A stretch of DNA of 64,000 nt, taken from assembly GCA_902765855.1 (NCBI GenBank), contig CACXBF010000008.1, forward strand, positions 1-64,000, written 5' to 3'. A program made the position numbers and the translations under genes. The stretch comes from an uncultured Ruminococcus sp. Its GTDB lineage: Bacteria > Bacillota > Clostridia > Oscillospirales > Acutalibacteraceae. The notes under the pieces were generated by a model. The model was not told the DNA's origin. It worked only from the letters and a program-made list of their open reading frames with translations, and made no database searches. Below, piece by piece: positions 8,012 through 57,785 of this stretch (position 1 is the stretch's first letter; the number at the start of each line of letters is the position of its first letter).

Positions 8012-8255
8012 TTAAAAGTTTTGCTCAAGCTTTTTCAAAAGCTTGCAGTTTCCAAAGGCAGAGCCTTTGGTCGCCGTCCTTAGACGGCGAAATACTTAAT
8101 GCTCCCTAAAGCGCAGGAGGGTAGAAAAACATTCCAGTGGAATGTTTTTCGTAGGGAACCCTCGCAGGGGGTTCCCTGGTGAAGTGCTTCCGTTGTAAAG
8201 ATATGAAATTGTTTGACAAATCTTGTTCGTAGTGAGCGTGGGAAGATATTTGATG
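8012..8255. repeat. Intergenic modular hairpin repeat, copy 1
   Basis: Contains in order the CAAGC..GCTTG hairpin, the CCAAAGGC-AGA-GCCTTTGG hairpin, a GTCGCCGTC..GACGGCG hairpin, an additional perfect AAAAACATTCC-AGT-GGAATGTTTTT hairpin, the GTAGGGAACCCTCGCAGGG module and a diverged copy of the GACAAGTCTCGCTCGTAG module. The same modules recur in seven other gaps of this window, in either orientation. No credible gene lies inside; the short ORFs here arise from the palindromes. Confidence 0.8.
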
Positions 8256-8307
8256 CAATCGGAGAAACTACCAAAATGATTTTATAGCAACAATGAGGTG
8301 AAATTTA

Positions 8308-11300
8308 ATGGTGCATATAATAAACGGCAGAAGTGGCAGTGATAAAAGTACAGTTTTATTAGATACTATTTGTGAGAGAGCAAAAAATAATGATAATATA
8401 ATTCTTATTGTACCTGAACAAGCATCATTTCAGAATGAAAGTGAAATATTAAATCGACTTGGCGCAAAAAATGCCAGAAATATAGATGTATTAAGTCTTC
8501 AGCGTCTTTGTGACCATATAGAAAGGAAATATGGCAAAGATTCCAGAAAAGAGCTTTCTGATGGTGCAAGGCTTATTTTGATGAGCCTTGCTATTGAGGC
8601 TGTTCAGGATAAGCTTGAGCTTTATGGCGAGCGTACAGGAAAATCGGATTTAACCTCACTTATGCTTACAGCAGTTTCCGAATATAAAATATGTTTGATT
8701 ACCCCCGAAAAGCTTATGGAGCTTAGTAAGAAGGTTCCAGAGGGCAGACTTAGAAAAAAACTCCATGATAGTGCATTGATTTATGAAGCTTATGACGCAC
8801 TTATTTCAGAAACATATGTAGACCCTTTGGATAAACTTATTTCGGCAAGTTTGGTTATTGCGGAAAAGAGTTTTTTTAGCGGAAAGGTTGTTGCGATAGA
8901 TTCTTTTCACAGCTTTACTGCCGAAGAATTGGGAATTGTTTCTCTTGCGATTCAGCAATCAAAGGATTTTTATATAACGCTTTGCAGAGATATAGAAAAC
9001 AACGATAATGATTCAATGTTCTATTTTGTAAATCGAACACACTCCGTAATAAAAAAACTTGCTTCGGAAAATGGCATAAAGTGTGAGGATATAAATCTTT
9101 CCGTAGATAATAATAAGCGTTATAAAAATGATGATTTAAGATATGTTGAAGAACTGATTTTCCGCAATGAAGATTTAGAGCAGGATTTTGGCGGTTCAGT
9201 TATGCTATATGAAGCGGAAGATATTTACGATGAATCCGAACAAGTCGCTCGTGATATTAAAAAGCTTGTTGCAGATGGATATAGATATGATGAGATTGCA
9301 ATAATATGCCGAGATTCGGAAATGTATAGAGGAATAATAAATTCGTCATTTACAAAATATGATATTCCGCTTTTTGTTTCATATCCGGAAAGATTAGAGG
9401 CAAAGCCGCTTATGCGATTGGTACTTTCAATGCTTGAGGCGGCAGTCGGAAATCTCACAACCGAATCAATACTTACTATATTAAAAACAGGTATGACATC
9501 AATTCCAGATGATGATATATTCACTTTAGAAAATTATGCTTTTGTGTGGAATTTAAAAGGTTCGGATTGGAATAAATCTTTTACAAGAAGTATAGATGGA
9601 TTTGTAGATAGAAGCGGAGAAGACGGTGCGAAAATTTTAGGAAAGCTTGAAACTCATAGAAAGCTTATTTCAGAAACCCTTTTAAGATTGCGTGATAACC
9701 TAAAAGATGCCGATGGTGCAGGAATGACAAGTGCAGTTTTTAAGGCACTTGAAGATTTTGGAGCTTTTGAAAAGGTTAAGCAATTATCCCTTTATTTTGA
9801 ACAAAATGATGAAAGTATACTTGCTGAGGAAGAATTGAGAGTATGGGATATGCTTATGCAGTTATTTGATACTCTTTATGAAACTCTAAAAGAAAAATAT
9901 ATATCACCGAAAAGATATTTTGAACTTATAGAAATGATAATTTCGCAAGGAAATATATCGACTATTCCAAGAACTCTTGATGAAGTTACTCTCGGAAATG
10001 CAGATACAATTCGTCCTGATAAACCGAGAGTAGTATTTATAATTGGTGCAGTTGATGGAATTTTTCCAAAAACGCCAACAGATAATGGAATTTTCACAAG
10101 CTTAGAGCGTGATGAGTTGATTTCAATGGCACTTCCGCTCACAGATTCGATAGGAAATATCTATCTTCAAGAGGAATTTTTCGCTTATAAGGCGTGTTCA
10201 TATGCAAGTGAAAAGCTATTCATAAGCCGATATTTAGAGAATACCGCAGGCGAAACTACAATAGAATCTAAAATTATATCCGAAATAAAAGCAATATTTC
10301 CTGATATAAAGATTCGTGCAAGGTCTGATATGCCTATAACAGATATAGTATGTTCAAAGACAACTGCTTTAGAGCAGTATGCGCTTTTAAAGCATAGAGA
10401 ACCATCAACTTCTGAAACAATCAAAGAATGTATAAAAAAATATCCAGAACTTTCGGGCAGAATTGATTCAACAGACAGAGCCTTTGAGAAGAAACCTTTC
10501 CAAATATCGGACAAAAAAATTGCAAAAAGCCTTTTCGGCAATAATATGAATATTTCTGCGACACAGATTGAAGAATATTACCATTGTCCGTTCAGATATT
10601 TCTGTCACTATGGAATAAAAGCCAAACCAAGTGAAAGAGCAAAATTTGACCCTCGACAATACGGAAGTGCGGTACATTATATATTTGAAAAGCTTCTTTC
10701 AAAGGAATATGGTGTAGAAAAGCTTTCAGAACAAAGCTATGAGGGAAGAAAGAAAGCTGTTGAAAATGTTTTAGACAGCTATCTTGAAAGCTTAGGCGGA
10801 GAGGATGAAAAGTCTGCAAGTTTTATGCGTATGTATAAGGGAATAATTTCATCAGTTATGATTATTCTTGAAAGACTTATTGCAGAACTTACGGAATCTG
10901 AATTTAAACCTGTTGAAGTTGAACTTCCGATAGGCGGAGATGAAGCCAGAATTTCATATAAGATTATCCTGCCTGATGGTGGAAGAGTATTTATAAGAGG
11001 CTCGGTCGATAGAGTTGACAAAATGGAAAAAGCTGATGAGAGCGGAAAAGCCTGTGATTATATAAGAGTAATCGACTATAAAACGGGCAATAAGAAATTT
11101 GTGCTTGATGATATTCTTTGCGGAATAAATGTTCAGATGTTGCTATATCTTTCAGCGATAACCAAGAATGGAAATGAACTTTTCGGCGATAATATCATAC
11201 CTTGTGGAGTTTTATATGTTCCGTCAACAAGTGGTTATATAGATTCAGAAAATAAAAGCTCTGATGATATAGTTGATGAGCGAGAAAAAGAGCTTTCTAT

Positions 11301-11691
11301 GAACGGAATAGTTATAAATGATGAAAGCATACTTTCTGCTATGAACGGAAGTAAGGGGTTTGTTAAGTTTGGAAAATGGGGAACTAATGGCAGAAGAACG
11401 CCGATTGTAGAAACTTGTTCAGATAAGGATTTTGAAAGTATATTTGATAAAATAGATGAAGTTATTTCAGATATGGCTATGGAGCTTCGTGGCGGAAATA
11501 TTTCAGCAGAACCTCTGGAAATCAAAAAAGGTACTAAGGTTGATCTCGATGGTTGTGAATACTGCATATATGACAGTATTTGCAATTTTGAGGATAGTAT
11601 GAAAAGAAAAACTCATATGAGAATAGACAAAGCGGAAAATGTTCTTAAAGAGATTAAGGAAGACGAAGAAAATAATGACGGGAAGGAGTGA
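8308..11691 (+). CDS. addB: ATP-dependent helicase/nuclease subunit B (AddB)
   Basis: A protein of 1127 residues, the usual AddB length. AddB pairs with AddA to process double-strand breaks for recombination. The C-terminal nuclease shows the DYKTG motif (about residue 928) and the four cysteines of the AddB iron-sulphur cluster: C760 in YYHCPFRYF and C1083, C1086 and C1092 in GCEYCIYDSIC. The N-terminal P-loop reads GRSGSDKST (residues 7-15): position 12, normally Gly in GxxGxGK[ST], is Asp, encoded by GAT at 8341. In AddAB the main motor is in AddA, so the complex may still unwind DNA, but nucleotide binding by AddB is probably weakened. The stop overlaps the ribosome-binding region of addA, indicating co-translation. 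Confidence 0.95.
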   Translation: MVHIINGRSGSDKSTVLLDTICERAKNNDNIILIVPEQASFQNESEILNRLGAKNARNIDVLSLQRLCDHIERKYGKDSRKELSDGARLILMSLAIEAVQDKLELYGERTGKSDLTSLMLTAVSEYKICLITPEKLMELSKKVPEGRLRKKLHDSALIYEAYDALISETYVDPLDKLISASLVIAEKSFFSGKVVAIDSFHSFTAEELGIVSLAIQQSKDFYITLCRDIENNDNDSMFYFVNRTHSVIKKLASENGIKCEDINLSVDNNKRYKNDDLRYVEELIFRNEDLEQDFGGSVMLYEAEDIYDESEQVARDIKKLVADGYRYDEIAIICRDSEMYRGIINSSFTKYDIPLFVSYPERLEAKPLMRLVLSMLEAAVGNLTTESILTILKTGMTSIPDDDIFTLENYAFVWNLKGSDWNKSFTRSIDGFVDRSGEDGAKILGKLETHRKLISETLLRLRDNLKDADGAGMTSAVFKALEDFGAFEKVKQLSLYFEQNDESILAEEELRVWDMLMQLFDTLYETLKEKYISPKRYFELIEMIISQGNISTIPRTLDEVTLGNADTIRPDKPRVVFIIGAVDGIFPKTPTDNGIFTSLERDELISMALPLTDSIGNIYLQEEFFAYKACSYASEKLFISRYLENTAGETTIESKIISEIKAIFPDIKIRARSDMPITDIVCSKTTALEQYALLKHREPSTSETIKECIKKYPELSGRIDSTDRAFEKKPFQISDKKIAKSLFGNNMNISATQIEEYYHCPFRYFCHYGIKAKPSERAKFDPRQYGSAVHYIFEKLLSKEYGVEKLSEQSYEGRKKAVENVLDSYLESLGGEDEKSASFMRMYKGIISSVMIILERLIAELTESEFKPVEVELPIGGDEARISYKIILPDGGRVFIRGSVDRVDKMEKADESGKACDYIRVIDYKTGNKKFVLDDILCGINVQMLLYLSAITKNGNELFGDNIIPCGVLYVPSTSGYIDSENKSSDDIVDEREKELSMNGIVINDESILSAMNGSKGFVKFGKWGTNGRRTPIVETCSDKDFESIFDKIDEVISDMAMELRGGNISAEPLEIKKGTKVDLDGCEYCIYDSICNFEDSMKRKTHMRIDKAENVLKEIKEDEENNDGKE

Positions 11692-11696
11692 TAATC

Positions 11697-15377: not shown

Positions 15378-15423
15378 GTGAATTATATTATTATAAACTA
15401 AATAATATAATTTACTAACAGAC

Positions 15424-15745
15424 TTTTCTGAGACAATTAAAAGTTTTGCTCAAGGCGAAGTGCCTTCGCTGTCAAGTCGCGGAATCGGTTTTGCAAGCAA
15501 AACCTCGACATTGACAGAGAAAGTTCATTGACGCGAATTAAGAATTTATCAATGAATTATCGCTTAGACAACAAACTTCCCAAAGATACTTAAAAGTTTT
15601 GCTCGAGCCTTTTTAAAGGCTCGCAGTTTCCAAAGGTATTCACCTACGGCAGAGCCTTTGGTGGGTTTTAAGAACGAAGCTCATCTCACACTCTCTAAGA
15701 GGTGAACGAAGTTCGCCTCTTAATTTCTTTTGATATAAAAGGCTG
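15424..15745. repeat. Intergenic modular hairpin repeat, copy 2
   Basis: Fills most of the gap between addA and the AAA+ gene. It holds the CGCGGAATC module with a perfect GGTTTTGC-AA-GCAAAACC hairpin (shared with the locus at 19.2 kb), then TTAAAAGTTTTGCTCGAG with the CGAGCC..GGCTCG hairpin, and a CCAAAGG..GCCTTTGG hairpin whose loop is enlarged by about 13 bases. It ends with a GAGGTGAACGAAGTTCGCCTC hairpin. No coding potential seen. A TATAAT at 15800-15805 downstream could be a -10 element for the next gene, but no convincing -35 is present. Confidence 0.8.
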
Positions 15746-15891
15746 ACCTAAACTTTGAGTGTCTTGAGGAAAGATTGTTAGCTATTGACTGTTTTTTTGT
15801 ATAATGGTAAAATTATAATTGATAAACTGAATGGCGGAATATCATCTTATTTTATTATATGATGGTAAAATATTTTGCGGAGGATTTATAA

Positions 15892-17892: not shown

Positions 17893-17919
17893 TTGTAGTT
17901 AATGAGAGGTAATTTTATA

Positions 17920-18837: not shown

Positions 18838-19290
18838 ATTTCCCAAGGACCTCAAAGTTTAGGTCAAGCCTTTTTAAAGGCTTGTGGATTTCAAAGTTAA
18901 AGCCTTTGTTCGCTCTACGCAGAGAGCGAAACATTTTTGGGCGAAGCCAAACATTCTTTACTTTTAAGCGGCGGATTTTATCCGCCGCTTTTTTCTTTTG
19001 TCAGCAACATTAGTAACACAGGGCCCCCCCTGCGAGGGTTCCCTACGCTTAGAGGAGCATAAAGTATTTCGCTGCCTGCGGACGGCGACCAAAGGCTCTG
19101 CCTTTGGAATCTGCAAGCTTTTGAAAAAGCTTGAGCAAAACTTTGCGGCGAGCCGCCGCTCACAAGACGCGGAATCGGTTTTGCAAGCAAAACCTCGGCA
19201 TTTGCATAGGCAGTTTATTGACGCGGATTAAGACTTTAGCAATGAATTACCTAATCAACAAGAAGAAACTTAAAAGTTTGTTAGGTAGCT
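18838..19290. repeat. Intergenic modular hairpin repeat, copies 3a (forward) and 3b (inverted)
   Basis: 18838-18960 carries the AAGCC..GGCTTG and CTCTACGCAGAGAG modules in the same orientation as copy 1. After a terminator hairpin, 19020-19290 carries the same set in reverse complement: GAGGGTTCCCTACG, the GACGGCGACC module, ACCAAAGGCTCTGCCTTTGG, CAAGCTTTTGAAAAAGCTTG, then the CGCGGAATCGGTTTTGCAAG module seen in copy 2. A C-rich run sits at 19021-19029. Head-to-head arrangement around 18.97-19.02 kb. ORFs predicted here follow the palindromes and are not credible genes. Confidence 0.8.
18966..18994 (+). terminator. Terminator after YbjN-like genes
   Basis: AAGCGGCGGA-TTTTA-TCCGCCGCTT followed by a T run. 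Strong stem; it would end the AAA+/YbjN operon. Confidence 0.85.
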
Positions 19291-19437: not shown

Positions 19438-19527
19438 GTAAATGAGTATTGGGAATAATGGCGTTCACCAATTTGGGCTCATTCCGCACAAAATTGGGAA
19501 TGAGCTCTAATGGTGGACGCATTTTTT
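19438..19527 (+). promoter_or_regulatory. gltBD leader with terminator hairpin, candidate attenuator
   Basis: The leader folds into a two-part stem: GCGTTCACCA (19461-19470) with TGGTGGACGC (19511-19520), and GGGCTCATTCC (19475-19485) with GGAATGAGCTC (19497-19507). A run of six T at 19522-19527 follows, so this is a strong terminator ahead of the gltB start codon. The nonamer ATTGGGAAT occurs twice, at 19448-19456 and 19493-19501. The first copy can pair with CCAAT (19468-19472) or ATTCC (19481-19485), which would break the terminator. Mutually exclusive folds upstream of a nitrogen-assimilation operon suggest regulated antitermination. The trigger (protein, ANTAR-type regulator or metabolite) cannot be told from sequence. 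Confidence 0.6.
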
Positions 19528-19563
19528 GACCTATAAATCAACTGTAAAGGAGAATTACTTCTG

Positions 19564-22500
19564 ATGGATAATTTCAGAAATCAGGAACCTTTCGCAAAAC
19601 AGGGACTTTATGACCCTCGCTTTGAGCATGATAACTGCGGTATAGGTTCCGTAGTCAATATCAATGGTATAAAATCTCGTCAGGTTGTAGATAATGCTTT
19701 GAGCATTGTTGAAACTCTCGAACACAGAGCTGGTAAAGATGCAGAGGGCAAGACCGGTGACGGTGTTGGTATTCTCTTGCAGATTTCACACGAATTTTTT
19801 AAGGCTGAAACAGCTAAGCTTGGCTTTGACATTGGCGGAGAAAGAGATTATGGTGTCGGAATGTTCTTCTTCCCACAGAATAACCTCAAAAGAATGCAGG
19901 CTATGAAGCTTTTTGAAATCGTTATAGAAAAAGAGGGTATGGAGTTCCTCGGTTGGAGAGAAGTTCCTACAAACCCTTCTGTTATCGGTCAGAAAGCTCT
20001 TGATAGTATGCCGTACATTATGCAGGCTTTCGTTAAGCGTCCTGTAAATGTAGAAAAGGGTCTTCCTTTTGATAGAAAGCTTTATGTTGCTCGTAGAGTT
20101 TTTGAGCAGAGCAACGAGGAAACTTATGTTGTTTCACTTTCAAGCAGAACTATCGTTTATAAAGGTATGTTCCTTGTTAAAGAACTTCGTAAGTTCTTTT
20201 ATGACCTTCAGAGTGAAAAATATACTTCTGCTATTGCGACTGTTCACAGCCGTTTCAGTACAAACACAAATCCGAGTTGGCAGAAGGCTCACCCGAATCG
20301 TATAATCGTTCACAATGGTGAAATCAATACTATCACAGGTAATGCCGACAGAATGCTTGCAAGAGAAGATTCAATCTCAAGCGACATTTTCAAGGACGAT
20401 ATTGATAAGGTTTTCCCGATTGTTGATACAAACGGTTCTGACTCCGCTCGTCTTGATAACTCTCTTGAGTTTATGATGATGGCCGGTATTCCACTTCCGC
20501 TTGCGGTTATGATTACAATTCCTGAGCCTTGGGAAAACAGCAAGACAATCTCAAACACAAGAAGAGATTTCTATCAATACTACGCAACAATGATGGAGCC
20601 TTGGGACGGTCCTGCATCAATTATCTTCTCTGATGGCGATATCGTTGGTGCAGTTCTCGATAGAAACGGTCTCAGACCTTCAAGATATTATATTACAACA
20701 GACGGCTTCCTCGTACTTTCATCAGAGGTTGGCTGTATAGACATTCCACCTGAAAAGGTTCTTGTAAAAGAGCGTTTGCGTCCTGGTAAGATGCTCCTTG
20801 TTGACACAACAAAGGGTAAGCTTATTGATGATACTGATATTAAGGACTACTACTCACATAGACAACCTTACGGTGAATGGCTTGATAATAACCTCGTTCA
20901 CCTCAAGGATTTGAAGATTCCTAATAAGAATGTTATCCACTTTGATGATGAACAGCTTGTAAGACTTCAAAAAGCTTTCGGTTACACATATGAGGAAATC
21001 AGAACAAGTATTCTTCCTATGGCTAAGAATGGCACAGAGCCTATTGCGGCTATGGGTGCAGATGTACCAATTCCTCCGCTTGCTGATGAAAAAGCTCCGC
21101 TTTTCAACTATTTTAAGCAGCTTTTCGCACAGGTTACAAACCCACCATTTGATGCAATCCGTGAGGAAATAGTTACTGATACAAGCGTTTATATTGGTTC
21201 TGATGGTAATATCCTTGATGAAAAGCCTGAAAACTGTCATGTACTTAAAATTCATAATCCTATCTTGACAAACACTGATATGCTCAAGATTAAAAATATG
21301 AATGTTCCGGGAATTAAGCCGGCAGTTATTCCTTTAACATATTATAAGAATACAAACCTTGCTAAGGCTATTGACCAGCTTTTCTTAAAGGCTGATAAGG
21401 CTTATAAAGACGGTGCAAATATTCTTATTCTTTCAGATAGAGGCGTTGACGAATATCATGTTGCTATTCCGTCATTGCTTGCAGTTTCTGCACTTCAACA
21501 GCACCTCGTTTCTACAAAGAAGAGAACTTCTGTTTCTATGCTTCTTGAGAGTGCAGAGCCTTGCGAAATCCATCATTTCGCAACACTTCTTGGTTATGGT
21601 GCTTGTGCTATTAACCCATATCTCGCACAGGAAACTATCCGCCATCTTGTTGATACAGGTGCTTTGGATAAGGATTACTATGCAGCTGTATATGACTACA
21701 ATTCAGCAGTTCTTCACGGTATCGTAAAGATTGCTTCTAAGATGGGTATTTCTACAATCCGTTCTTATCTTGGTTCTAAGATTTTTGAGGCTATCGGTAT
21801 CTCTAAAGAGGTTATCGACAAATATTTCACAAATACAGTAAGCCGTGTAGGCGGTATTACTCTTGATGATATAAGCAAGCGTTCAGAGAAACTTCACTCC
21901 GCAGCATATGACCCACTTGGACTTAATGTTCTTCTTGAGGTAAATAGTGCAGGTAGCCACAAGCTCAGAAGTGGCAAGGAAGAGCATCTCTATAATCCTG
22001 AAACTATACATCTTCTTCAAGAGTCTACAAGAACCTGCAACTATGATATGTTTAAGCAGTATTCTGAGGCTATCAACAAAGAAGACAGACATATGAATCT
22101 CAGAAGTTTGCTTGATTTCAACTTCCCAGAAGATGGCGGAATTCCTATTGATGAGGTAGAGAGCGTTGAGAGTATTTGCCACCGATTTAAGACTGGTGCT
22201 ATGTCTTACGGTTCAATTTCACAAGAGGCTCACGAAACAATGGCTATCGCTATGAATACTATCGGCGGTAAGTCTAACTCCGGTGAGGGTGGTGAAGATG
22301 TTGAGCGTCTTACAATCGGTAAAGACGGTCTTAATCGCTGTTCTGCAATCAAGCAGGTTGCTTCTGGTCGTTTCGGCGTAACTTCTGAATATCTTGTAAG
22401 TGCTAAGGAAATTCAGATTAAGATGGCACAGGGTGCTAAGCCTGGTGAGGGTGGACATCTTCCTGGTAAGAAGGTTTATCCTTGGGTTGCTAAGACAAGA

Positions 22501-24126
22501 CATTCAACACCAGGTGTTGGTCTTATCTCTCCGCCACCACATCATGATATTTATTCTATCGAAGACCTTGCACAGCTTATCTATGACCTTAAAAATGCAA
22601 ACAAGAATGCAAGAATTTCTGTAAAACTTGTTTCTGAGGCTGGTGTAGGTACAATCGCAGCCGGTGTTGCTAAGGCTGGTGCAGGAGTTGTATTGATTTC
22701 CGGTTATGACGGCGGTACCGGTGCTGCTCCGAGAAACTCAATCTATAATGCCGGTCTTCCTTGGGAGCTTGGTCTTGCTGAAACTCATCAGACACTTATT
22801 ATGAACGGTTTGCGTTCTAAGGTTGTTATTGAAACAGATGGTAAGCTTATGACAGGTCGTGATGTTCTTGTTGCAGCACTTCTTGGTGCAGAGGAATACG
22901 GCTTTGCTACTGCTCCGCTTGTTACAATGGGTTGTGTAATGATGAGAGTATGTAATCTCGATACATGTCCTGTTGGTATAGCAACTCAGAACCCTGAACT
23001 CAGAAAGAGATTTAAAGGTAAGCCTGAGTATGTTATAAACTTTATGCACTTTATTGCACAGGAACTCAGAGAGTATATGGCTAAGCTTGGTATCAGAACT
23101 GTTGATGAGCTTGTTGGCCGTTCTGATCTCCTAAAAGTAAAAGAAACTGAGGACGGTTCTAAAGAAGGCAAGATTGATATGACAAATATTCTCCGTAATC
23201 CTTATATTGGAGAAGATGTACCAAGAATATTCAATCCTGCTGATAAGTATGATTTTGAGCTTGAAAAGACAATAGACGAAAAGGTTATTATGAAGAAGCT
23301 CGGTTCTGCTCTTAAAAATAAGACCAAGAAATCTATTGATATTGATGTTACAAATACAGACCGTTCAGTTGGTACAATCTTTGGTTCAGAGATTACAAAG
23401 CGCTATCATGATAACACTCTTGATGACGATTTCTTCGTTGTAAGATGTCATGGTGCAGGTGGTCAGAGCTTTGGTGCATTTATTCCAAAGGGCTTGACAC
23501 TTGAACTTGAGGGCGATAGCAACGATTACTTCGGTAAAGGTCTTTCTGGTGGTAAGCTTAAAGTTTATCCTCCAAAGGGTTCTAACTTCAAGAGAGATGA
23601 AAATATCATTATCGGTAATGTCGCACTTTATGGTGCAACAAGCGGTAAGGCATTTATCAGCGGTGTTGCCGGTGAACGCTTCTGCGTAAGAAACTCCGGC
23701 GCAATCGCTGTTGCTGAGGGTGTCGGCGACCACGGCTGTGAATATATGACTGGTGGTAGGGTTGTTATTCTTGGAAAGACTGGCAAAAACTTTGCCGCAG
23801 GTATGAGCGGCGGTATTGCTTATGTTCTTGACGAGGATTCCGACCTCTATATGAAGATGAATAAGGAACTTGTTTCTATCGGCGGTGTTAAGGATAAGTA
23901 TGACATTGCAGAGCTTAGAGATATTATCCAAGAGCATGTTGATGCAACAAATTCTCCTAAGGGTAAGGAAATTCTTGATAACTTCGAGTATTATCTGCCT
24001 AAGTTCAAAAAGATTCTTCCAAATGATTATGCTAAGATGATGCAGGCTATCTTTGTTCTTGAAGAAAAGGGTATGAGTCCTGAGCAAGCAAAAATCGAAG
24101 CATTCTATATGACAACTAAAAAGTAA
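19564..24126 (+). CDS. gltB: Glutamate synthase large subunit
   Basis: A protein of 1520 residues, the normal GltB length. It makes glutamate from glutamine and 2-oxoglutarate. The class II amidotransferase nucleophile is C25 in HDNCGIG; the first 24 residues are a propeptide to be cleaved. The central and FMN/2-oxoglutarate synthase domains follow, with GAKPGEGGHLPG and SGYDGGTGAAP. The 3Fe-4S cysteines are C1124, C1130 and C1135 (spacing 6 and 5, as in Escherichia coli GltB). The C-terminal beta-helix GXGXG domain is complete, with repeats such as GGRVVILG. It is followed 13 bases later by gltD. Codon use is biased toward frequent codons compared with its neighbours, suggesting high expression. 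Confidence 0.97.
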   Translation: MDNFRNQEPFAKQGLYDPRFEHDNCGIGSVVNINGIKSRQVVDNALSIVETLEHRAGKDAEGKTGDGVGILLQISHEFFKAETAKLGFDIGGERDYGVGMFFFPQNNLKRMQAMKLFEIVIEKEGMEFLGWREVPTNPSVIGQKALDSMPYIMQAFVKRPVNVEKGLPFDRKLYVARRVFEQSNEETYVVSLSSRTIVYKGMFLVKELRKFFYDLQSEKYTSAIATVHSRFSTNTNPSWQKAHPNRIIVHNGEINTITGNADRMLAREDSISSDIFKDDIDKVFPIVDTNGSDSARLDNSLEFMMMAGIPLPLAVMITIPEPWENSKTISNTRRDFYQYYATMMEPWDGPASIIFSDGDIVGAVLDRNGLRPSRYYITTDGFLVLSSEVGCIDIPPEKVLVKERLRPGKMLLVDTTKGKLIDDTDIKDYYSHRQPYGEWLDNNLVHLKDLKIPNKNVIHFDDEQLVRLQKAFGYTYEEIRTSILPMAKNGTEPIAAMGADVPIPPLADEKAPLFNYFKQLFAQVTNPPFDAIREEIVTDTSVYIGSDGNILDEKPENCHVLKIHNPILTNTDMLKIKNMNVPGIKPAVIPLTYYKNTNLAKAIDQLFLKADKAYKDGANILILSDRGVDEYHVAIPSLLAVSALQQHLVSTKKRTSVSMLLESAEPCEIHHFATLLGYGACAINPYLAQETIRHLVDTGALDKDYYAAVYDYNSAVLHGIVKIASKMGISTIRSYLGSKIFEAIGISKEVIDKYFTNTVSRVGGITLDDISKRSEKLHSAAYDPLGLNVLLEVNSAGSHKLRSGKEEHLYNPETIHLLQESTRTCNYDMFKQYSEAINKEDRHMNLRSLLDFNFPEDGGIPIDEVESVESICHRFKTGAMSYGSISQEAHETMAIAMNTIGGKSNSGEGGEDVERLTIGKDGLNRCSAIKQVASGRFGVTSEYLVSAKEIQIKMAQGAKPGEGGHLPGKKVYPWVAKTRHSTPGVGLISPPPHHDIYSIEDLAQLIYDLKNANKNARISVKLVSEAGVGTIAAGVAKAGAGVVLISGYDGGTGAAPRNSIYNAGLPWELGLAETHQTLIMNGLRSKVVIETDGKLMTGRDVLVAALLGAEEYGFATAPLVTMGCVMMRVCNLDTCPVGIATQNPELRKRFKGKPEYVINFMHFIAQELREYMAKLGIRTVDELVGRSDLLKVKETEDGSKEGKIDMTNILRNPYIGEDVPRIFNPADKYDFELEKTIDEKVIMKKLGSALKNKTKKSIDIDVTNTDRSVGTIFGSEITKRYHDNTLDDDFFVVRCHGAGGQSFGAFIPKGLTLELEGDSNDYFGKGLSGGKLKVYPPKGSNFKRDENIIIGNVALYGATSGKAFISGVAGERFCVRNSGAIAVAEGVGDHGCEYMTGGRVVILGKTGKNFAAGMSGGIAYVLDEDSDLYMKMNKELVSIGGVKDKYDIAELRDIIQEHVDATNSPKGKEILDNFEYYLPKFKKILPNDYAKMMQAIFVLEEKGMSPEQAKIEAFYMTTKK

Positions 24127-29548: not shown

Positions 29549-29570
29549 ATTTTAATCGAATATAATTACT

Positions 29571-29609
29571 AAAAGGCTAACCGATTTTATTGTGAATTGG
29601 TTAGCCTTT
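29571..29609 (+). terminator. Terminator after acyl-CoA synthetase
   Basis: AAAGGCTAACCGATT-TTATTGTG-AATTGGTTAGCCTTT, a long near-perfect stem with a short 3' T run. Confidence 0.8.
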
Positions 29610-29617
29610 GCATATTA

Positions 29618-30130
29618 AACGGAGTGCCTCCGCTCCCAGGACGCGGAATCGCTCGACAAGTCTCGCTCGTAGAGAATTAGACAAGATTATTGCCGCGGTC
29701 GATGAATTTTCCAATGAACTACCGATTAGTTTCATAACTTATCTAAGACAATTAAAAGTTTCGCGCGAGCCTTTTCAAAGGCTCGCGGATTCCAAAGGCA
29801 GAGCCTTTGGTGAGTTTTAAGGGCGAAGCCCTTAACCTGTTTTGCTCCCTTAGGGGTGAACTTTGTTTGCCTCTAAATTCTTTTGTTAGCACCATTAGTT
29901 ATTAGGTGCGGACAAAGTCCGCACTTAGAAAGCAAAGAATGTTAAGGGCGTTGCCCTTAAAACCCATGAGGGACTCCGTCCCTCAACCCTGCAAGCTTTT
30001 GGAAAAGCTTGTGCAAAACTTTTCGGCGAGCCGCCGCTCCCAAGACGCGGAATCGCTCGGCTTTGCCTCGCTCGTAGTTGATTAGATAAGATTGTTTCCG
30101 CGGTTAAAGTAATTACCAGTGAATTACTTT
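29618..30130. repeat. Intergenic modular hairpin repeat, copies 4a (forward) and 4b (inverted)
   Basis: 29618-29880 forward: the GACGCGGAATCGCTCGACAAG module, then GACAATTAAAAGTTTCGC with CGAGCC..GGCTCG, the CCAAAGGC-AGA-GCCTTTGG hairpin and AAGGGCGAAGCCCTT. 29941-30130 is inverted: bases 29941-29992 are an exact 52-base reverse complement of 51440-51491, 21 kb away. They are followed by an inverted AAGCTTTT..AAAAGCTT hairpin and a second GACGCGGAATCGCTCG module. GTGCGGAC-AAA-GTCCGCAC lies between the two halves. No coding potential. Confidence 0.85.
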
Positions 30131-30214
30131 TTAGATAGAAGTAACTTCATTGTGCATAATGCTGAAAATTGCTTTTAATTATGTGCAGTTTGCACGAAGA
30201 TTTCCGTTTTGCTG

Positions 30215-38274: not shown

Positions 38275-38505
38275 TGTTAGTTTATAATTAAAGTTGAAAA
38301 GTCTTGAGAGAGACTTTTCGAGTGATTTCTCATCTTGGGAACGGAGGCTTGCCGTCAGGGAACCCTCTGCGAAGGTTTCCTACGATTAGATGAGCATAAA
38401 GTGTTTCGCTCTCTGTGGAGAGCGACAAGGGCGTTGACCTACGAGTAGCTTTCATCAACGAAGCTTGTGTAGAAAAGGCTCGAGCGAAACTTTTAATAAA
38501 AATTG
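38275..38505. repeat. Intergenic modular hairpin repeat, copy 5 (inverted, diverged)
   Basis: Contains AAAGTCTTGAGAGAGACTTTT, GGGAACCCTCTGCGAAGGTTTCC, GATGAGCATAAAGTGTTTCG with CTCTCTGTGGAGAG, then AAGGCTCGAGCGAAACTTTT, which is the reverse complement of the AAAAGTTTCGCTCGAGCC start of copies 6 and 7. It interrupts the otherwise tight housekeeping operon between rsmB and rlmN. No gene or clear promoter seen here. Confidence 0.75.
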
Positions 38506-48980: not shown

Positions 48981-49006
48981 AATATTAAATAAGGATAGGT
49001 GATATT

Positions 49007-50362: not shown

Positions 50363-50412
50363 GAAAATTAGAAATTTCTTCTGATATTTATAAATAAAAG
50401 TTAAAAAAGTGC

Positions 50413-50441
50413 TTGCATTATTTTTACTATTGTGATAAAAT
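50413..50441 (+). promoter_or_regulatory. Promoter of secG
   Basis: TTGCAT (50413-50418), 17-base spacer, TAAAAT (50436-50441) with TG one base upstream, an extended -10. The block ATTGTGATAAAATAATA is almost the same as in the miaB promoter at 55.68 kb. Confidence 0.75.
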
Positions 50442-50502
50442 AATAAAGCTATTGAAATGAATTTACTTATTTTTGTTTATAGATTTTAGGAGGAAATTAT
50501 CA

Positions 50503-50751: not shown

Positions 50752-50773
50752 TCAGAGAAATATAATAAAGATT

Positions 50774-50806
50774 TTAACGGCATAGCTTGTAGGCTGTGCC
50801 GTTTTT
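50774..50806 (+). terminator. Terminator after secG
   Basis: TTAACGGCATAGC-TTGTA-GGCTGTGCCGTT followed by TTTT. Confidence 0.85.
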
Positions 50807-50830
50807 ATGTTATTCTGAATAGGTGATAAA

Positions 50831-51367: not shown

Positions 51368-51397
51368 GCTTTGTTTCTTATTAGCTAATAAACTTGT

Positions 51398-51500
51398 CTT
51401 AGACAATTAAAAGTTTCGCTCGAGCCTTTTCAAAGGCTCGCAGGGTTGAGGGACGGAGTCCCTCATGGGTTTTAAGGGCAACGCCCTTAACTTTTCTTGC
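51398..51500. repeat. Intergenic modular hairpin repeat, copy 6 (forward)
   Basis: The cleanest short copy: TTAGACAATTAAAAGTTTCG, the CGAGCC-TTTTCAAA-GGCTCG hairpin, GAGGGAC-GGA-GTCCCTC and TTAAGGGC-AAC-GCCCTTAA. Bases 51440-51491 match the reverse complement of 29941-29992 without a mismatch over 52 bases. Confidence 0.85.
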
Positions 51501-51503
51501 CTT

Positions 51504-51533
51504 TAAATGGCGGACTTTGTCCGCCATTTTTAT
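51504..51533 (+). terminator. Terminator within repeat-flanked gap
   Basis: AAATGGCGGAC-TTT-GTCCGCCATTT followed by TTA. It ends the DUF5662 transcript after the repeat; GTGCGGAC-AAA-GTCCGCAC in copy 4 is a similar element. Confidence 0.75.
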
Positions 51534-51619
51534 TTATGTATTTGCTGAATAAATTAAGATGTATATAAATCCCACTTCGTAAACAGTTTGTAAAATTATG
51601 TAAAATATTTAAGCTTTAC

Positions 51620-51648
51620 TTGCGGAAATTTTGTCGAACTGATATAAT
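51620..51648 (+). promoter_or_regulatory. Promoter of the ppx-like/ppk pair
   Basis: TTGCGG (51620-51625), 17-base spacer, TATAAT (51643-51648). The GTG start is 41 bases downstream with a TAGGGGG site between them. Confidence 0.65.
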
Positions 51649-51689
51649 AAAAACAATAACGCTTATATCTGTAGATAGGGGGTTCTTTT

Positions 51690-53252: not shown

Positions 53253-53266
53253 AGGGGGAGAACGCT

Positions 53267-55399
53267 GTGTCAGATAAGATTAAAAAGCAAAAGGAAAAAG
53301 ATAAAGAAAAAAATTATCCATTCAATAATCGTGAACTAAGCTGGATGGATTTCAACTATAGAGTTCTTGAGGAGGCACACGAAAAAGAAAATCCGATTTT
53401 GGAGAGAGTTAAGTTTCTTGCAATCACTGCCTCTAATCTCGATGAATTTTTTATGGTAAGAGTTGCAGGACTTATGGATCAAGTACATTCGGGTTATAAG
53501 AAAAAAGACCCATCTGGTCTTACACCTGCCGAACAGCTTGAAAAGCTCATAGAAAAGACGCATATATTTATGGATAAGCAATATTCATGCCTATCCCGTT
53601 CAATAATTCCCGCACTTAAAAAGCATAATCTTTTCTTTTTAAGATATGAAGATATGAACGAGAAACTCAAAGAAAAGTGTGATAGCTATTTTGATAAAGT
53701 GCTTTTCCCAGTATTAACTCCACTTGCAGTTGATACGAGCCGTCCATTTCCGTTTCTTGCAAATAAGACACTTAATATCGCAGTAAGACTTGCAAAGGAT
53801 AGCGGAGATGCTTTCGCAGTAGTTCAAGTTCCGTCAATCATTCCAAGATTTTTTGAAGTTTCAAGCGAGAACGGCAGATACTTTGTTATGCTTGAAGACA
53901 TTATTAAGAATAACCTCAATAAGCTTTTCCAGCTTTATACTATTGAAGCTTATGCAGATTTCAGACTTACAAGAGATTCAGACCTTGACATTGACGAAGA
54001 AGCAGAAGATTTGATGGTTGCTATTGAGAAATCTATCAAAAAGCGTCAGAGAGGCGAACCGGTCCGAGTTGAGATTGCTCAGAAGTGTGACCAAGCATTG
54101 AGAGAATTTCTTGTAGATATGCTCAAAGTAAATGAGAGCGAAATTTATGAAATTCCGGGACCACTCGATTTAACATTCTTATCAAAGTTTGGTTCTATTA
54201 AAGGCTGTGATGATTTAAGATTTGAGCCAATCAAACCGGTAACACCGCCAGCAGATTTCTATGGATATGATGATGTTTTCGAGGCTATTCGTGAAAAGGA
54301 TAGACTTGTACACCACCCATTTGAAAGCTTTGATTCAGTTATTCGTTTTGTTCAGGCTGCCGCAGAGGACGAAAATGTTCTTGCTATCAAGCAAACACTT
54401 TATCGTGTCAGCGGAAATTCCCCGATTGTTGCCGCATTGATTCGTGCCGCAGAAAATGGCAAGCAGGTTACTGTACTTGTCGAGCTTAAAGCAAGATTCG
54501 ATGAAGAAAATAACATCGTATGGGCGAAAAAGCTCGAAAAAGCTGGTTGCCATGTAATCTATGGTCTGCAAGGACTTAAAACCCACTGCAAAATTTTACT
54601 TGTTGTACGCCGAGAGGAAGACGGTATTCGCCGTTATCTTCACCTTGGAACAGGTAACTATAATGATATTACCGCAAGATTCTATACAGATATTGGTATG
54701 TTCACTTGTCGTGAATCTTTCGGTCGTGACGCATCATCATTATTTAATGTAATTACAGGTTATTCTGCACCGCCTGAATATCTCAAAATGAATGTCGCAC
54801 CACTCGGACTTCGCACATTCTTTGAATCTATGGTTCAGAGAGAAATAGCAAATGCCAAGAATGACCTTCCTTCAGGCATTATAATTAAGGTTAATTCAAT
54901 GGTTGACCCGGATTTGATTTCACTTCTGTATGATGCCTCAAGATCAGGAGTTAAGATTACACTTATCGTTCGTGGAATCTGCTGTCTTATTCCTGGAATA
55001 GAGGGAGTCAGTGAGAATATTACCGTAATAAGTATAGTTGGTCAGCTTTTGGAGCATAGCAGAATTTTCAAGTTTGAAAATGGCGGAGAACCGGTTGTAT
55101 ATATCGGTTCAGCAGACTGGATGCAGAGAAACCTTGATAAGCGAGTTGAGCTTGTTTTCCCTGTTGAAGATGAAGACTTAAAAAAGCGTGTTTTCGGTAT
55201 GCTCGATATTATGATGAACGATACTATAAATGCAAGGGTTCAAAAAAGTGATATGACATATGTTATGATTGATAAGCGAGGAAAACAACCACTTAATTCC
55301 CAGCTTGAATTTTACAGACTTGCAAAAGAAGCTTTAGAAGAAGTCAAGAACGATAGGCAACAACCAATGTTCGTACCAAAAGAAAGTGAAAATAACTAA
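53267..55399 (+). CDS. ppk1: Polyphosphate kinase 1
   Basis: A 710-residue protein from a GTG start with an AGGGGGAG site. It makes polyphosphate from ATP. The N-terminal domain begins NNRELSWMDFNYRVLEEA. The autophosphorylated His is in GLKTHCKILLVV and the second essential His in LLEHSRIFKFENG; HLGTGNYND and YIGSADWMQRNLDKRVE complete the phospholipase-D-like C-terminal domains. Operon with the Ppx/GppA-like gene 14 bases upstream and a terminator just after. The pair would set polyphosphate levels for stress and phosphate storage. Confidence 0.97.
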   Translation: MSDKIKKQKEKDKEKNYPFNNRELSWMDFNYRVLEEAHEKENPILERVKFLAITASNLDEFFMVRVAGLMDQVHSGYKKKDPSGLTPAEQLEKLIEKTHIFMDKQYSCLSRSIIPALKKHNLFFLRYEDMNEKLKEKCDSYFDKVLFPVLTPLAVDTSRPFPFLANKTLNIAVRLAKDSGDAFAVVQVPSIIPRFFEVSSENGRYFVMLEDIIKNNLNKLFQLYTIEAYADFRLTRDSDLDIDEEAEDLMVAIEKSIKKRQRGEPVRVEIAQKCDQALREFLVDMLKVNESEIYEIPGPLDLTFLSKFGSIKGCDDLRFEPIKPVTPPADFYGYDDVFEAIREKDRLVHHPFESFDSVIRFVQAAAEDENVLAIKQTLYRVSGNSPIVAALIRAAENGKQVTVLVELKARFDEENNIVWAKKLEKAGCHVIYGLQGLKTHCKILLVVRREEDGIRRYLHLGTGNYNDITARFYTDIGMFTCRESFGRDASSLFNVITGYSAPPEYLKMNVAPLGLRTFFESMVQREIANAKNDLPSGIIIKVNSMVDPDLISLLYDASRSGVKITLIVRGICCLIPGIEGVSENITVISIVGQLLEHSRIFKFENGGEPVVYIGSADWMQRNLDKRVELVFPVEDEDLKKRVFGMLDIMMNDTINARVQKSDMTYVMIDKRGKQPLNSQLEFYRLAKEALEEVKNDRQQPMFVPKESENN

Positions 55400-55408
55400 A
55401 AGCTATAA

Positions 55409-55438
55409 CAAGGCGTGGAGATTATCTCCACGCCTTTA
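55409..55438 (+). terminator. Terminator after ppk1
   Basis: AAAGGCGTGGAG-ATTAT-CTCCACGCCTTT, long perfect stem; short T run. Confidence 0.85.
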
Positions 55439-55444
55439 ATATTT

Positions 55445-55635
55445 TTTAGAATCAAGTTGATGCGGTTGGAGAATTTTCCAATAAACTATCGAACTGGCGA
55501 ACACAGTTCACCCCTACGATTTGTTGACCAATTTTCCCAAGGCAATTAAAAGTTTCGCTCGAGCCTTTTCAAAGGCTCGCAGGGTCGAGGGACGGGGTCC
55601 CTCGTGGGTTTTAATGGCAAAGTCCTTAACATTAA
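55445..55635. repeat. Intergenic modular hairpin repeat, copy 7 (forward)
   Basis: Begins with the GCGGTTGGAGAATTTTCCAA end of the CGCGGAATC module, then GGCAATTAAAAGTTTCGC, CGAGCC-TTTTCAAA-GGCTCG, GAGGGAC-GGG-GTCCCTC and TGGGTTTTAATGGC. Compared with copy 6 the stems are kept while loops and linkers differ. No gene inside. Confidence 0.8.
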
Positions 55636-55665
55636 ACATACCGATTCGCTAAATTTTGAAAACCC

Positions 55666-55694
55666 TTGAAGAAAAAGCCTAATTGTGATAAAAT
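55666..55694 (+). promoter_or_regulatory. Promoter of miaB
   Basis: TTGAAG (55666-55671), 17-base spacer, TAAAAT (55689-55694) with TG one base upstream. Same extended -10 block as the secG promoter. Start of transcription near 55701, leader about 55 bases. Confidence 0.75.
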
Positions 55695-55755
55695 AATACG
55701 GAATACCTTTTATAAGGTCTATTTTTGCAATATTTTTAGGAACGGAGAGTTCATT

Positions 55756-57171
55756 TTGGATAATCAACTTAATCAAAATCTTAACACAGCCGATTTGAAC
55801 GGGATTCACGAATATTCCGAACTCTTGAGCGATATTCTTAAATTTCGTGCAAGAGGCGAAGTACCGATGGCTCTTGTCAGAACATATGGATGTCAGCAGA
55901 ATGTTGCTGATAGCGAAAAGCTAAAGGGAATGCTCAAAGAAATGGGTTGTGATTTTACCGAAGATGAAAACGAAGCAGATATTATAATTTTTAATACCTG
56001 TGCTATTCGTGAACACGCCGAGGATAGAGTTTTCGGAAATGTCGGTGCATTAAAGAATATAAAACGCCGTCACCCGTCATTGATTATAGCATTATGTGGC
56101 TGTATGATGGAGCAGGAACATATAGCAGAGAGAATTTATAAGAGCTTTTCGTTTGTTTCGCTTGTTTTTGGAACACACGAAATTCATAATTTCCCGAAAC
56201 TGTTATATTCCACAATTACAGAAAATCATAGAATAGTTGCTCGTGGAAATGACGATGGAATGATTCACGAGAATATTCCAACCCTGCGTGACGGAACTTT
56301 CAAGGGTTGGCTTTCGATTATGTATGGTTGCAATAATTTCTGCACATACTGTATTGTCCCTTATGTTCGTGGCAGAGAGAGAAGTCGTGAGCCGGAAGTA
56401 ATTATGCAAGAGGCTCGGGATATGATTGCCGCAGGCTATAAGGATATTACACTTCTCGGACAGAATGTAAATTCCTATGGAAAAACTCTCGAAAGCAAAA
56501 AGACCTTTGCATCATTGTTGGCAGATATAGCCGAACTTGACGGCGATTTCAGACTTCGCTTTATGACTTCACACCCGAAGGATTTATCAAATGAACTGAT
56601 TGATGTTATTGCGTCACACGATAAGATATGCAACCATATTCATTTGCCTTTCCAGTCAGGAAGTGACAGAATTTTAAAGCTTATGAACCGCCACTATGAC
56701 AGAAAGCGTTATATGGAGATAGTAAACTATGCCAAGGAGAAAATTCCGAATCTTTCTCTTACAAGTGATATTATAGTAGGTTTCCCTGGTGAAACTTATG
56801 AAGATTTTCAGCAGACCTTGAGCCTTATCAAAGAAGTTGAATATACCTCATTGTTTACATTCATATTCTCTCCAAGAGTCGGTACTCCGGCCGCAAAAAT
56901 GGACGACCCGATTCCATATGAAGAAAAGTCAAAGTGGTTCTCCGAGCTTTTAAAGGTTCAGGAAGAGATTGCCGCAAAACGCTGTGAATCTATGGTTTCA
57001 AAAACATATAGGGTACTTGTCGAGAGTGCAAAGCCGAATGGCGAGCTTACTTCTCGAACAGAAGAAAATATAATAGTCGAGTTTGAAGGCAGTGAAGACC
57101 TCATAGGAACATTCCAAAATGTAGAGGTCACAAAGGCAAGAAACTGGATATTAAAAGGAAAATTAGTATAA
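55756..57171 (+). CDS. miaB: tRNA-2-methylthio-N6-dimethylallyladenosine synthase
   Basis: About 471 residues from a TTG at 55756, with an ACGGAGAG site at the right distance; longer in-frame starts would lie inside the promoter. The N-terminal UPF0004 domain has the three cluster cysteines in YGCQQN, NTCAIREHAEDR and LCGCMMEQ. The radical-SAM motif is CNNFCTYCIVPYVRGRE, and a TRAM domain ends the protein. It adds the methylthio group to i6A37 of tRNAs reading UNN codons. It lies directly ahead of a ylbF/ricA-type gene, as in Bacillus. Confidence 0.96.
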   Translation: MDNQLNQNLNTADLNGIHEYSELLSDILKFRARGEVPMALVRTYGCQQNVADSEKLKGMLKEMGCDFTEDENEADIIIFNTCAIREHAEDRVFGNVGALKNIKRRHPSLIIALCGCMMEQEHIAERIYKSFSFVSLVFGTHEIHNFPKLLYSTITENHRIVARGNDDGMIHENIPTLRDGTFKGWLSIMYGCNNFCTYCIVPYVRGRERSREPEVIMQEARDMIAAGYKDITLLGQNVNSYGKTLESKKTFASLLADIAELDGDFRLRFMTSHPKDLSNELIDVIASHDKICNHIHLPFQSGSDRILKLMNRHYDRKRYMEIVNYAKEKIPNLSLTSDIIVGFPGETYEDFQQTLSLIKEVEYTSLFTFIFSPRVGTPAAKMDDPIPYEEKSKWFSELLKVQEEIAAKRCESMVSKTYRVLVESAKPNGELTSRTEENIIVEFEGSEDLIGTFQNVEVTKARNWILKGKLV

Positions 57172-57185
57172 AGGAGATTTTCAAA

Positions 57186-57599
57186 ATGGCAGATGTAATA
57201 GAAATGGCAAGAGAAATCGGCAGACAGCTTCAGAAAGATGAGCTTTACCTCAAGCTTGAGCTTACAAGACAGCAGAGCGAGGAAGACGAAGAACTTCAGA
57301 ATGCTATTGGCGAATTTAATTTAAAGCGTATGGCAATAAATAATGAAGCATCAAAGGCAGATAGAAGCGATGAAAAAATGCAGCAGCTCAACGCAGAAAT
57401 GCGTCATGCTTATGCAATTATTATGTCTAACGAAAATATGATAGCTTATAATGAAGCTAAGGCAGAATTTGATGTTGTTGTAAACAGAGTTCTTGCAATT
57501 ATCAATCAGTCAGCACAGGGAGCAGACCCAGAAACAGCCGATTATACACAAAGCAGCTGTTCAGGTAGTTGCGAAACTTGTGGCGGTTGCGGTGCGTGA
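57186..57599 (+). CDS. YlbF/YmcA (RicA/RicF) family protein with Cys-rich tail
   Basis: A 137-residue helical protein with an AAGGAG site, 14 bases after miaB. The first 110 residues are the YlbF/YmcA coiled-helical domain (VIEMAREIGRQLQKDELY at the start). In Bacillus the Ric complex (YlbF, YmcA, YaaT) carries iron-sulphur clusters and directs RNase Y maturation of mRNAs, competence and sporulation. Here the C-terminus ends in CSGSCETCGGCGA, four cysteines that could bind a metal or cluster. Position after miaB equals that of ymcA. Which Ric subunit it replaces is uncertain. Confidence 0.88.
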   Translation: MADVIEMAREIGRQLQKDELYLKLELTRQQSEEDEELQNAIGEFNLKRMAINNEASKADRSDEKMQQLNAEMRHAYAIIMSNENMIAYNEAKAEFDVVVNRVLAIINQSAQGADPETADYTQSSCSGSCETCGGCGA

Positions 57600-57785
57600 C
57601 AGCACAGGACAAGACACGGAATCGCTCGACAAGTCTCGTTTGTAGTAAGTATTAGAAGTTGGTTAACGCGGTCGAAGAAACTCTCGAGTAGCTAATAAAC
57701 TTTCCTAAGACACTTAAAAATTTCGCTTAAAATTTTTTAACAGCAACACTCTTGTCGCTCTCCGCAGACGGCAAAATACTTTATA
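57600..57785. repeat. Intergenic modular hairpin repeat, copy 8 (partial)
   Basis: ACACGGAATCGCTCGACAAG and TCTCGTTTGTAG, GCGGTCGAAGAAACTCTCGA, then AAGACACTTAAAAATTTCGC without the usual GAGCC/GGCTC hairpin, and CGCTCTCCGCAGACGGC with AAAATACTTTAT as in copies 1 and 3. It separates the miaB unit from mutS. A decayed copy. Confidence 0.75.

What the first reader, a model, noticed from the sequence alone, without database searches (positions are those of the whole stretch)
8012..57785. Family of modular, structure-conserved intergenic repeats in at least eight loci
The gaps at about 8.0, 15.5, 18.9-19.2, 29.7-30.1, 38.3, 51.4, 55.5 and 57.7 kb are built from the same set of short modules, mixed in order and orientation. 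The stems are kept by paired changes: CAAGCTTTT/AAAAGCTTG at 8.03 kb versus CGAGCCTTT/AAAGGCTCG at 51.42 and 55.56 kb; GGGCGAAGCCC, GGGCAACGCCC and GGGCGTTGCCC keep the stem and change the loop. This is the signature of selection on a folded RNA or DNA (or of a hairpin-mobilised element). All copies avoid genes. It resembles BOX/RUP-type mosaic elements in style, but the modules do not match any I can name.
Basis: partly seen in the sequence, partly recalled or inferred. Interest (0 to 1): 0.7.

Follow-up and report, generated by a model that had tools for sequence, protein, structure and literature searches.

The report
Invertible mosaic hairpin repeats in Clostridia
The gaps between genes in this gut bacterium carry many copies of a DNA repeat built from interchangeable hairpins, which turns up patchily in distant relatives and faces the other way at several shared sites in its sister species, so it behaves more like a small mobile DNA element than like a gene regulator.

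Summary
All eight gaps carry one repeat family; the genome (a sister species of Pseudoruminococcus massiliensis, 94% identical where compared) has at least 76 matches. A copy is an 'arm': AAAGTTT, then a chain of hairpins, each existing as interchangeable alleles. Two arms often form a long palindrome; a second unit lies beside them, often in tandem.

Stems covary (15 of 25 pairs change on both sides; score 0.392 against 0.168 in shuffles). Loops stay fixed while stems vary (CGCA in 51 of 56 hairpins of one kind). Signs of strand-specific, RNA-like pairing are weak.

The 31-base core is exact in scattered Clostridia: 16 of 394 genomes of the order match, three with 54-73 copies, the rest with one to six. 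Three copy-rich relatives show no REP-type transposase. Between sister species whole hairpin alleles differ at shared sites, and 4 of 11 two-arm palindromes are inverted, including the window's at 29.75-30.02 kb.

Best reading: a non-autonomous BOX/BIME-like mobile DNA family that spreads between Clostridia and reshuffles by module exchange and inversion. Mobiliser, exact ends and any function are unknown. Rfam and nine searches of an open-access paper library gave no name. New variant of a known kind.

The parts
7990..8272 (+). Element: arm 8015-8090, then CGCC..GGCG, AAAACATTCC and GGGAACCC hairpins and a degenerate end of the second unit
   Evidence: cluster 8010-8272
15412..15771 (+). Second unit (about 15412-15590) followed by an arm (15593-15686) and part of a reversed arm (15734-15771)
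18839..19264 (.). Two-arm element: arm 18854-18928 (+), reversed arm 19085-19144 (-), second unit 19145-19264 (+)
29620..30133 (.). Two-arm palindrome (arm 29755-29835 +, arm 29942-30022 -) with a second unit on each side (29620-29725 and 30023-30133); the interior is inverted relative to P. massiliensis
   Evidence: inversion
38306..38497 (-). Partial element: GGGAACCC and CGCTCTC hairpins and the first half of a reversed arm; a 38-bp hairpin module present in P. massiliensis is absent here at about 38386
51382..51531 (+). Single arm with four hairpins (model match 51410-51490), present at the same place in P. massiliensis
55492..55633 (+). Single arm (model match 55549-55629) preceded by a GGCGAAC..GTTCACC hairpin; absent at the orthologous site in G002
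57610..57784 (.). End of a second unit, start of an arm and part of a reversed chain, just upstream of mutS; absent at the orthologous site in G002

Best explanation
A high-copy family of non-autonomous, hairpin-modular mobile DNA elements that works like BIME, BOX or MITE repeats. The unit is an arm: AAAGTTT, then several short hairpins (two to about six by eye) whose stems exist as interchangeable alleles and whose loops are nearly fixed. SHOWN: arms occur singly and as palindromes of two arms, with a second unit beside them, often tandem; the copies placed in three genomes lie almost all between genes; sister species differ at shared sites by whole hairpin alleles, by module gain or loss and by inversion of the palindrome; the same core is at high copy in a few scattered Clostridia and was not found in most genomes of the order that were searched. 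INFERRED: copies spread horizontally and insert into intergenic DNA, mobilised in trans by an enzyme that reads the hairpins, probably by their loops on single-stranded or cruciform DNA; inversion and module exchange come from recombination or template switching between arms; effects on neighbouring genes are by-products.
For: Patchy, jackpot distribution: 16 of 394 genomes, 54, 73 and 70 copies in three, one to six in the other 13; exact core in at least 118 stretches of named Clostridia. Absence from same-genus G002 at 38.3, 55.5 and 57.6 kb, where the G000-G001 lineage has copies. Inversion at 4 of 11 two-arm elements shared with P. massiliensis (6 direct, 1 ambiguous). Allele differences at shared sites, all-combination mosaics and a one-step 38-bp module difference. 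Fixed loops on varied stems. Covariation. A few presence/absence sites, two with a 7-9 bp direct duplication round the extra DNA.
Against: No mobiliser, no autonomous copy and no constant terminal repeat was found. Only two of about five presence/absence sites show a target-like duplication, and both targets are A+T-rich. Most sites are shared by G000 and G001, so recent movement is slow at best. Convergent-gap enrichment in G000 (12 of 36 against 11 of 139 other gaps, p 0.0003) and six terminator-like matches against 0.8 expected in one element leave room for a transcriptional role. Sister-species inversions rest on draft assemblies.
Confidence: 0.66

Rival explanations
1. The modules are cis-acting RNA structures (terminators, processing or stability hairpins, or small RNAs) kept by selection on transcripts of neighbouring genes.
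For: Strong RNA folding (z -11.5 and -5.4); covariation; mild excess of G-T over A-C mismatches (17:9 and 17:6); convergent enrichment and divergent depletion in G000 (12 of 36 and 2 of 36, against 11 and 30 of 139) and fewer divergent gaps in the named set (7 of 69 against 59 of 282); six terminator-like matches in 29560-30180 against 0.8 in shuffles.
Against: The gap-type bias is not significant in G001 and absent in G026. By eye, terminator-like hairpins of the upstream gene precede the elements at 8.0, 29.6 and 55.4 kb, and G002 keeps such a hairpin at the 55.4 kb site without the element. Palindromes lie in either orientation at shared sites, which directional signals would not tolerate. 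Most genomes of the order lack the core.
Confidence: 0.15
2. Palindromic debris: an old element shaped mainly by replication template switching, which keeps stems perfect, swaps alleles and flips palindromes without any enzyme of its own or any current function.
For: Whole-allele differences and inversions are what strand switching between palindromes would give; no enzyme or phenotype was found.
Against: Exact core in scattered genera needs transfer as well. Loops, which template switching leaves free, are the constant part while stems vary: CGCA in 51 of 56 over 12 stems, AGA 96 times over 27 stems, GGA 79 times over 13 stems among 326 cores (sister-genome copies are many among these).
Confidence: 0.15
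3. True REP/BIME elements mobilised by a RAYT (TnpA-REP, Y1 transposase).
For: High-copy intergenic palindromes in mosaic arrays; G000 has three Y1_Tnp matches (one intact, one with stops, one below cut-off) and G026 three, all with stops.
Against: G001, G396 and G013, all copy-rich, have no Y1_Tnp match (G013 is only 79% complete). The hairpins carry no GTAG at the foot (read).
Confidence: 0.04

Closest known systems
BOX elements of Streptococcus pneumoniae and S. suis (PMC3049150; passages seen)
   Same: Composite intergenic repeats of separable modules in varying number and order, strongly structured, over 100 per genome, slow current insertion, mobiliser not named in the passages seen
   Different: Modules here are single hairpins with allelic stems and fixed loops, shared over several families of Clostridia, and the palindromes invert; sequence likeness to boxA/B/C was not tested
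REP/BIME with TnpA-REP (PMC8266576, passages; PMC3733652 and PMC3116915, listings)
   Same: High-copy intergenic palindromes in mosaic, alternating arrays
   Different: No GTAG tag, no Y1 transposase in three copy-rich genomes, and chains of different hairpins instead of one or two palindromic units
MITEs (definition as given in PMC3049150, passages)
   Same: A small structured non-coding element; two sites with direct duplications; a terminal-repeat-like sequence recurs at G026 copies
   Different: No constant terminal repeat in G000 and no partner insertion sequence found
Invertons, i.e. invertible segments between inverted repeats (recalled, no call)
   Same: A short segment between inverted repeats is found in both orientations
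   Different: No invertase or promoter identified; orientation differs between species, not yet shown within a population

Membership tests
REP/BIME (RAYT-dependent) | Y1 transposase (PF01797) in the same genome | tested here: not met
   No match in G001, G396 and G013; matches in G000, G026, G032, G279, G413 and G447, several broken or partial
REP/BIME (RAYT-dependent) | GTAG (or CGTC) tag at one end of the palindrome | tested here: not met
   Not seen at the foot of hp1, hp2 or hp3 in the copies read; checked by eye
BOX | boxA-boxB-boxC sequences | not tested
   No BOX reference sequence was compared; only the style is alike
MITE | Constant terminal inverted repeats | tested here: inconclusive
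   Arms are inverted repeats, but no common outer end in G000; a CCACCTGAGCGGTTG-like end recurs 15 times in 194 kb of G026
MITE | Target-site duplication of constant length | tested here: inconclusive
   TTAAAATAA (9 bp) and TAACAAA (7 bp) at two of about five presence/absence sites between G000 and G001
MITE | An autonomous partner with the same ends | tested here: inconclusive
   No transposase seen among 54 recurrent neighbour clusters, 9 representatives scanned with Pfam, the rest by eye; one 2.5-kb pair of G026 ends holds none; genomes were searched in part only
Structured RNA family | Match to an Rfam model at its cut-off | tested here: not met
   0 gathering-level matches in the window; sub-threshold matches only in two elements
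Structured RNA family | Transcription and processing | not testable with these tools
   No transcript data
Inverton | Both orientations within one population | not testable with these tools
   No reads held; only between-species inversion seen

The most novel reading that the evidence does not exclude
A new kind of trans-mobilised hairpin-array element: an unknown enzyme reads nearly fixed loops (CGCA, purine triloops) on variable stems in single-stranded DNA, copies and recombines modules between elements and between Clostridia, and the resulting palindromes flip freely, making dozens of intergenic regions per genome potential two-state switches.
Probability: 0.15. Interest if true: 0.8.

Novelty: new variant of a known kind. 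Interest (0 to 1): 0.58.

Why it matters
I found no description of a REP- or BOX-like family in gut and rumen Clostridia (nine keyword, exact-string and organism searches of one open-access library). The family is abundant, spans several families of Clostridia, and several of its matches lie at contig ends, so it may break assemblies. It is a natural experiment in hairpin evolution: stems exchange while loops stay. If the inversions occur within populations, they would be a new source of phase variation in commensals; if a loop-reading enzyme exists, it would be a new DNA-hairpin mobilisation system. Both are directly testable.

Tried and rejected
Hot spot for large rearrangements: only 1 of 12 synteny-block edges that I picked between G000 and G001 on contig C8 lies in an element; dropped. 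RAYT mobilisation: dropped. Autonomous element with a gene inside: the one 2.5-kb pair of G026 ends encloses no transposase by eye. Recurrent neighbour genes: 995 ORFs near cores in 259 loci form 54 clusters from three or more sources (one search printed only part); 9 representatives scanned with Pfam are housekeeping, surface or phage proteins, one without a match, the others judged by eye; no transposase seen. A terminal repeat TGTAARTTYGAT suggested by two G000 insertions: fuzzy hits at 17 clusters, no consistent end. Empty sites in the G396 genus: listed matches only 65-83% identical outside G396 itself, no clean sites. Phage and plasmid records: none with the window copy; with an 85-nt arm three partial, unannotated phage records and one 29-nt plasmid match that looks like chance. 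Terminator role: not general.

Counts to read with care. Candidates were scored only in part (40 of 207; 40 of 128; at most 76 per genome), so genome counts are lower bounds. Tallies of relatives include G000 itself. Stretches were chosen round known copies, so densities from them are not averages. The arms were picked by a pattern that fixes AAAGTTT and the outer hp3 pairs, so helix 3 pairs partly by selection; hp1 and hp2 were free. Of 40 arms printed I first used 33, dropping two misparsed, one near-duplicate, three with an unlike second hairpin and one with a broken first hairpin; with all but the two misparsed (38) the result holds. One measure does not exceed shuffles: further pair types, 27 observed against 29.1. 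In one search, two arm pairs were counted twice and swaps at inverted loci were included; one search gives the breakdown used here (17 arm pairs after removing the repeats, one further replaced arm set apart). One search had overlapping intervals; one search merges them. In one search, 6 of 100 arms with a misaligned hairpin were dropped. Alignment A2 is fitted to the model. The ORF caller is crude.
Full report
WHERE. The window is contig C8:1-64000 of a 2.39-Mb, 43-contig genome, G000. Its relative G001 is Pseudoruminococcus massiliensis Marseille-P3876: 2001 of 2001 bases of record NZ_OLMR01000005.1 match G001, and G000 is 94% identical there; NCBI family Acutalibacteraceae. G026 has contigs of the same lengths as MAG RUG10751, a Ruminococcus sp. 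(inferred from length only).

OBSERVATION. The eight gaps share direct and inverted repeats and read as one set of modules. One copy (51380-51524) has 76 matches in the genome and a second unit (30023-30133) has 50, with only part of the candidates scored. GGGCGTTGCCC is the other strand of GGGCAACGCCC.

ANATOMY. By eye and by counts, an arm reads AAAGTTT, hp1 (stems CGAGCCTTT 33, CAAGCTTTT 32, CAAGCCTTT 16 of 94 sister-genome arms), a GCRG linker, hp2 (CCAAAGGC 34, CGAGGGAC 29, TGAGGGAC 17), TGGGTTTT, hp3 (TTAAGGGC) and often hp4 (GGCGGAC type). An alternative chain has a CGC..CGCA..GCG hairpin, then AAAACATTCC and GGGAACCC hairpins. In G000 two arms often face each other round a short centre; in G396 arms point outwards from a centre, and G026 has single arms and two-arm forms. 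The second unit (GCGGCGAGCCGCCGC, GACGCGGAATCG, a CTCG hairpin, GACGCGGTCGAAG) lies beside arms, sometimes in tandem about 120-200 bp apart (places).

STRUCTURE. In 38 arms from G000/G001, G026 and other loci, 97.5% of 949 cells are standard pairs (shuffled 86.1%), 15 of 25 pairs change on both sides (13 of them in hp1 and hp2, which the selection left free), and the covariation score is 0.392 against 0.168 shuffled and at most 0.149 for slid partners; the number of further pair types does not exceed shuffles (27 against 29.1) (first set of 33). Fold z-scores are -9.6 (DNA) and -11.5 (RNA) for 302 nt and -5.4 (RNA) for a single arm. Among 326 distinct core contexts, the CGC-type hairpin has loop CGCA in 51 of 56 cases over 12 stems, and the first hairpin after hp1 has loop AGA 96 times (27 stems) or GGA 79 times (13 stems). 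Mismatches in 94 sister-genome arms: 17 G-T, 9 A-C, 11 other, of 2350 cells (p 0.17); in a model-fitted set 17 G-T, 6 A-C, 6 other, of 3121 (p 0.035). So a mark of one strand being read as RNA is weak.

MODULE EXCHANGE. hp1 and hp2 alleles occur in nearly all combinations (18, 16, 14, 14, 12, 8, 5, 4 for the eight common ones). At the same sites in G000 and G001, 17 arm pairs at 14 loci differ by 47 two-sided and 13 one-sided stem changes (counted without the repeated locus C3 7046): 18 of the two-sided changes are at two loci that are inverted, and 29 are at six other loci, mostly as whole hp1 or hp2 alleles. One further arm differs throughout, at an inverted locus. A 38-bp hairpin module is present in G001 and absent in G000 at about 38386.

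INVERSION. Orthologous intervals were found by collinear flanks and merged to 49 loci, 36 of them with 150 bp or more in both genomes: 26 align better directly, 5 better inverted, 5 are ambiguous (unmerged figures 26, 5 and 6 of 37). Many are single arms. Of 11 with both arm orientations in both genomes, 6 are direct, 4 inverted (the window's 29618-30118 and loci L004, L007, L015) and 1 ambiguous (C1:49.2 kb, scored inverted). In the window's element 239 of 269 aligned bases (about 29754-30023) are identical when inverted, against 308 of 413 in a longer direct alignment; the hp2 alleles, hp4 sequences and centre are all exchanged. An assembly error cannot be excluded, but the arms share only short exact stretches.

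DISTRIBUTION. The 31-base core is exact in at least 118 stretches of named genomes, with record titles naming Oscillospiraceae, Ruminococcus, Angelakisella, Anaerotignum neopropionicum, Defluviitaleaceae and others (scan stopped at its limit), and a looser core in 17 viral-contig stretches. With up to two mismatches, 16 of 394 genomes of the order match: G000 54, G026 73, G396 70, the other 13 one to six; the reversed control is zero throughout. The structure model finds 12 of 60 genomes, G000 included, among them 18 weaker matches in same-genus G002, but in the 83 kb of G002 taken around sites syntenic to the window its best match is E 0.041, and G002 has no element at 38.3, 55.5 and 57.6 kb.

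INSERTION. Presence/absence differences between G000 and G001 are few. At C3:31.4 kb G000 has about 300 bp flanked by TTAAAATAA on both sides where G001 has it once; at C1:148.7 kb TAACAAA is doubled. The other sites show no clear duplication, and no common end sequence emerged.

PLACEMENT. Of the 150 best-scoring model matches in stretches of three genomes, 141 are intergenic, 2 in ORFs, 7 at stretch edges, in DNA that is 83-84% coding. G000 copies favour convergent gaps (12 of 36 against 11 of 139 other gaps) and avoid divergent ones (2 of 36 against 30 of 139); G001 leans the same way without significance and G026 not at all. In the named set 7 of 69 placed copies are in divergent gaps against 59 of 282 gaps, and 25 of 124 fall in ORFs of the crude caller.

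MECHANISM. Shown: mosaic hairpin DNA whose alleles, modules and orientation differ between sister species and which is patchily shared. Inferred: trans-mobilisation, horizontal spread and loop recognition. A RAYT is not found in G001, G396 or G013, and no other candidate emerged. I put 0.66 on a mobile-DNA family, 0.15 on cis-acting RNA, 0.15 on palindromic debris and 0.04 on true REP.

KNOWN OR NOT. No Rfam family at its cut-off; the matches in the permissive scans were all below their gathering scores. Nine searches of one open-access paper library showed no description. Term look-ups found no mention of repeats in PMC8726730 on P. massiliensis and none of five Clostridia or Firmicutes terms in the REP survey PMC3733652. 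Most subscription journals are not in that library, so an earlier description cannot be excluded.

Noticed in passing
window 19455-19540: A nested inverted repeat ending in a T run lies just upstream of the glutamate synthase gene (19564-24126); it looks like a leader terminator or attenuator and is not part of the repeat family.
   Followed up: no
window 57752-57808: The mechanical mutS ORF starts at a TTG inside the repeat; an AGGAGG and ATG at 57806 suggest that the real start lies after the element.
   Followed up: no
window 446-2043: Short direct repeats (D8, D14) run through the first ORFs, 59-502 and the 1909-aa ORF 751-6480.
   Followed up: no
L004, L037, L209, L304: Copies lie near rnpA or dnaA in G000 and in G026 (RNase P domain; dnaA by recall of the sequence), so the family sits near the probable origin in two genera.
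   Followed up: partly
L219, L223, L227-L230: Six viral-contig loci carry the core beside the same SNF2-type helicase gene and four or more beside terminase genes, so one phage lineage seems to have a fixed copy.
   Followed up: partly
G026 stretches L295-L304: G026 has a further very abundant single-arm form of about 150-165 bp, with matches on both strands at the same places and in three other species of its genus (G444, G446, G447).
   Followed up: partly
L290, L293, L294: Another hairpin head (GCTACTTTTTGGCACAAAAAGTAGC or CTTCCTTTTGGCACAAAAGGAAG) replaces hp1 in some G396 copies; it may be a sister module.
   Followed up: no
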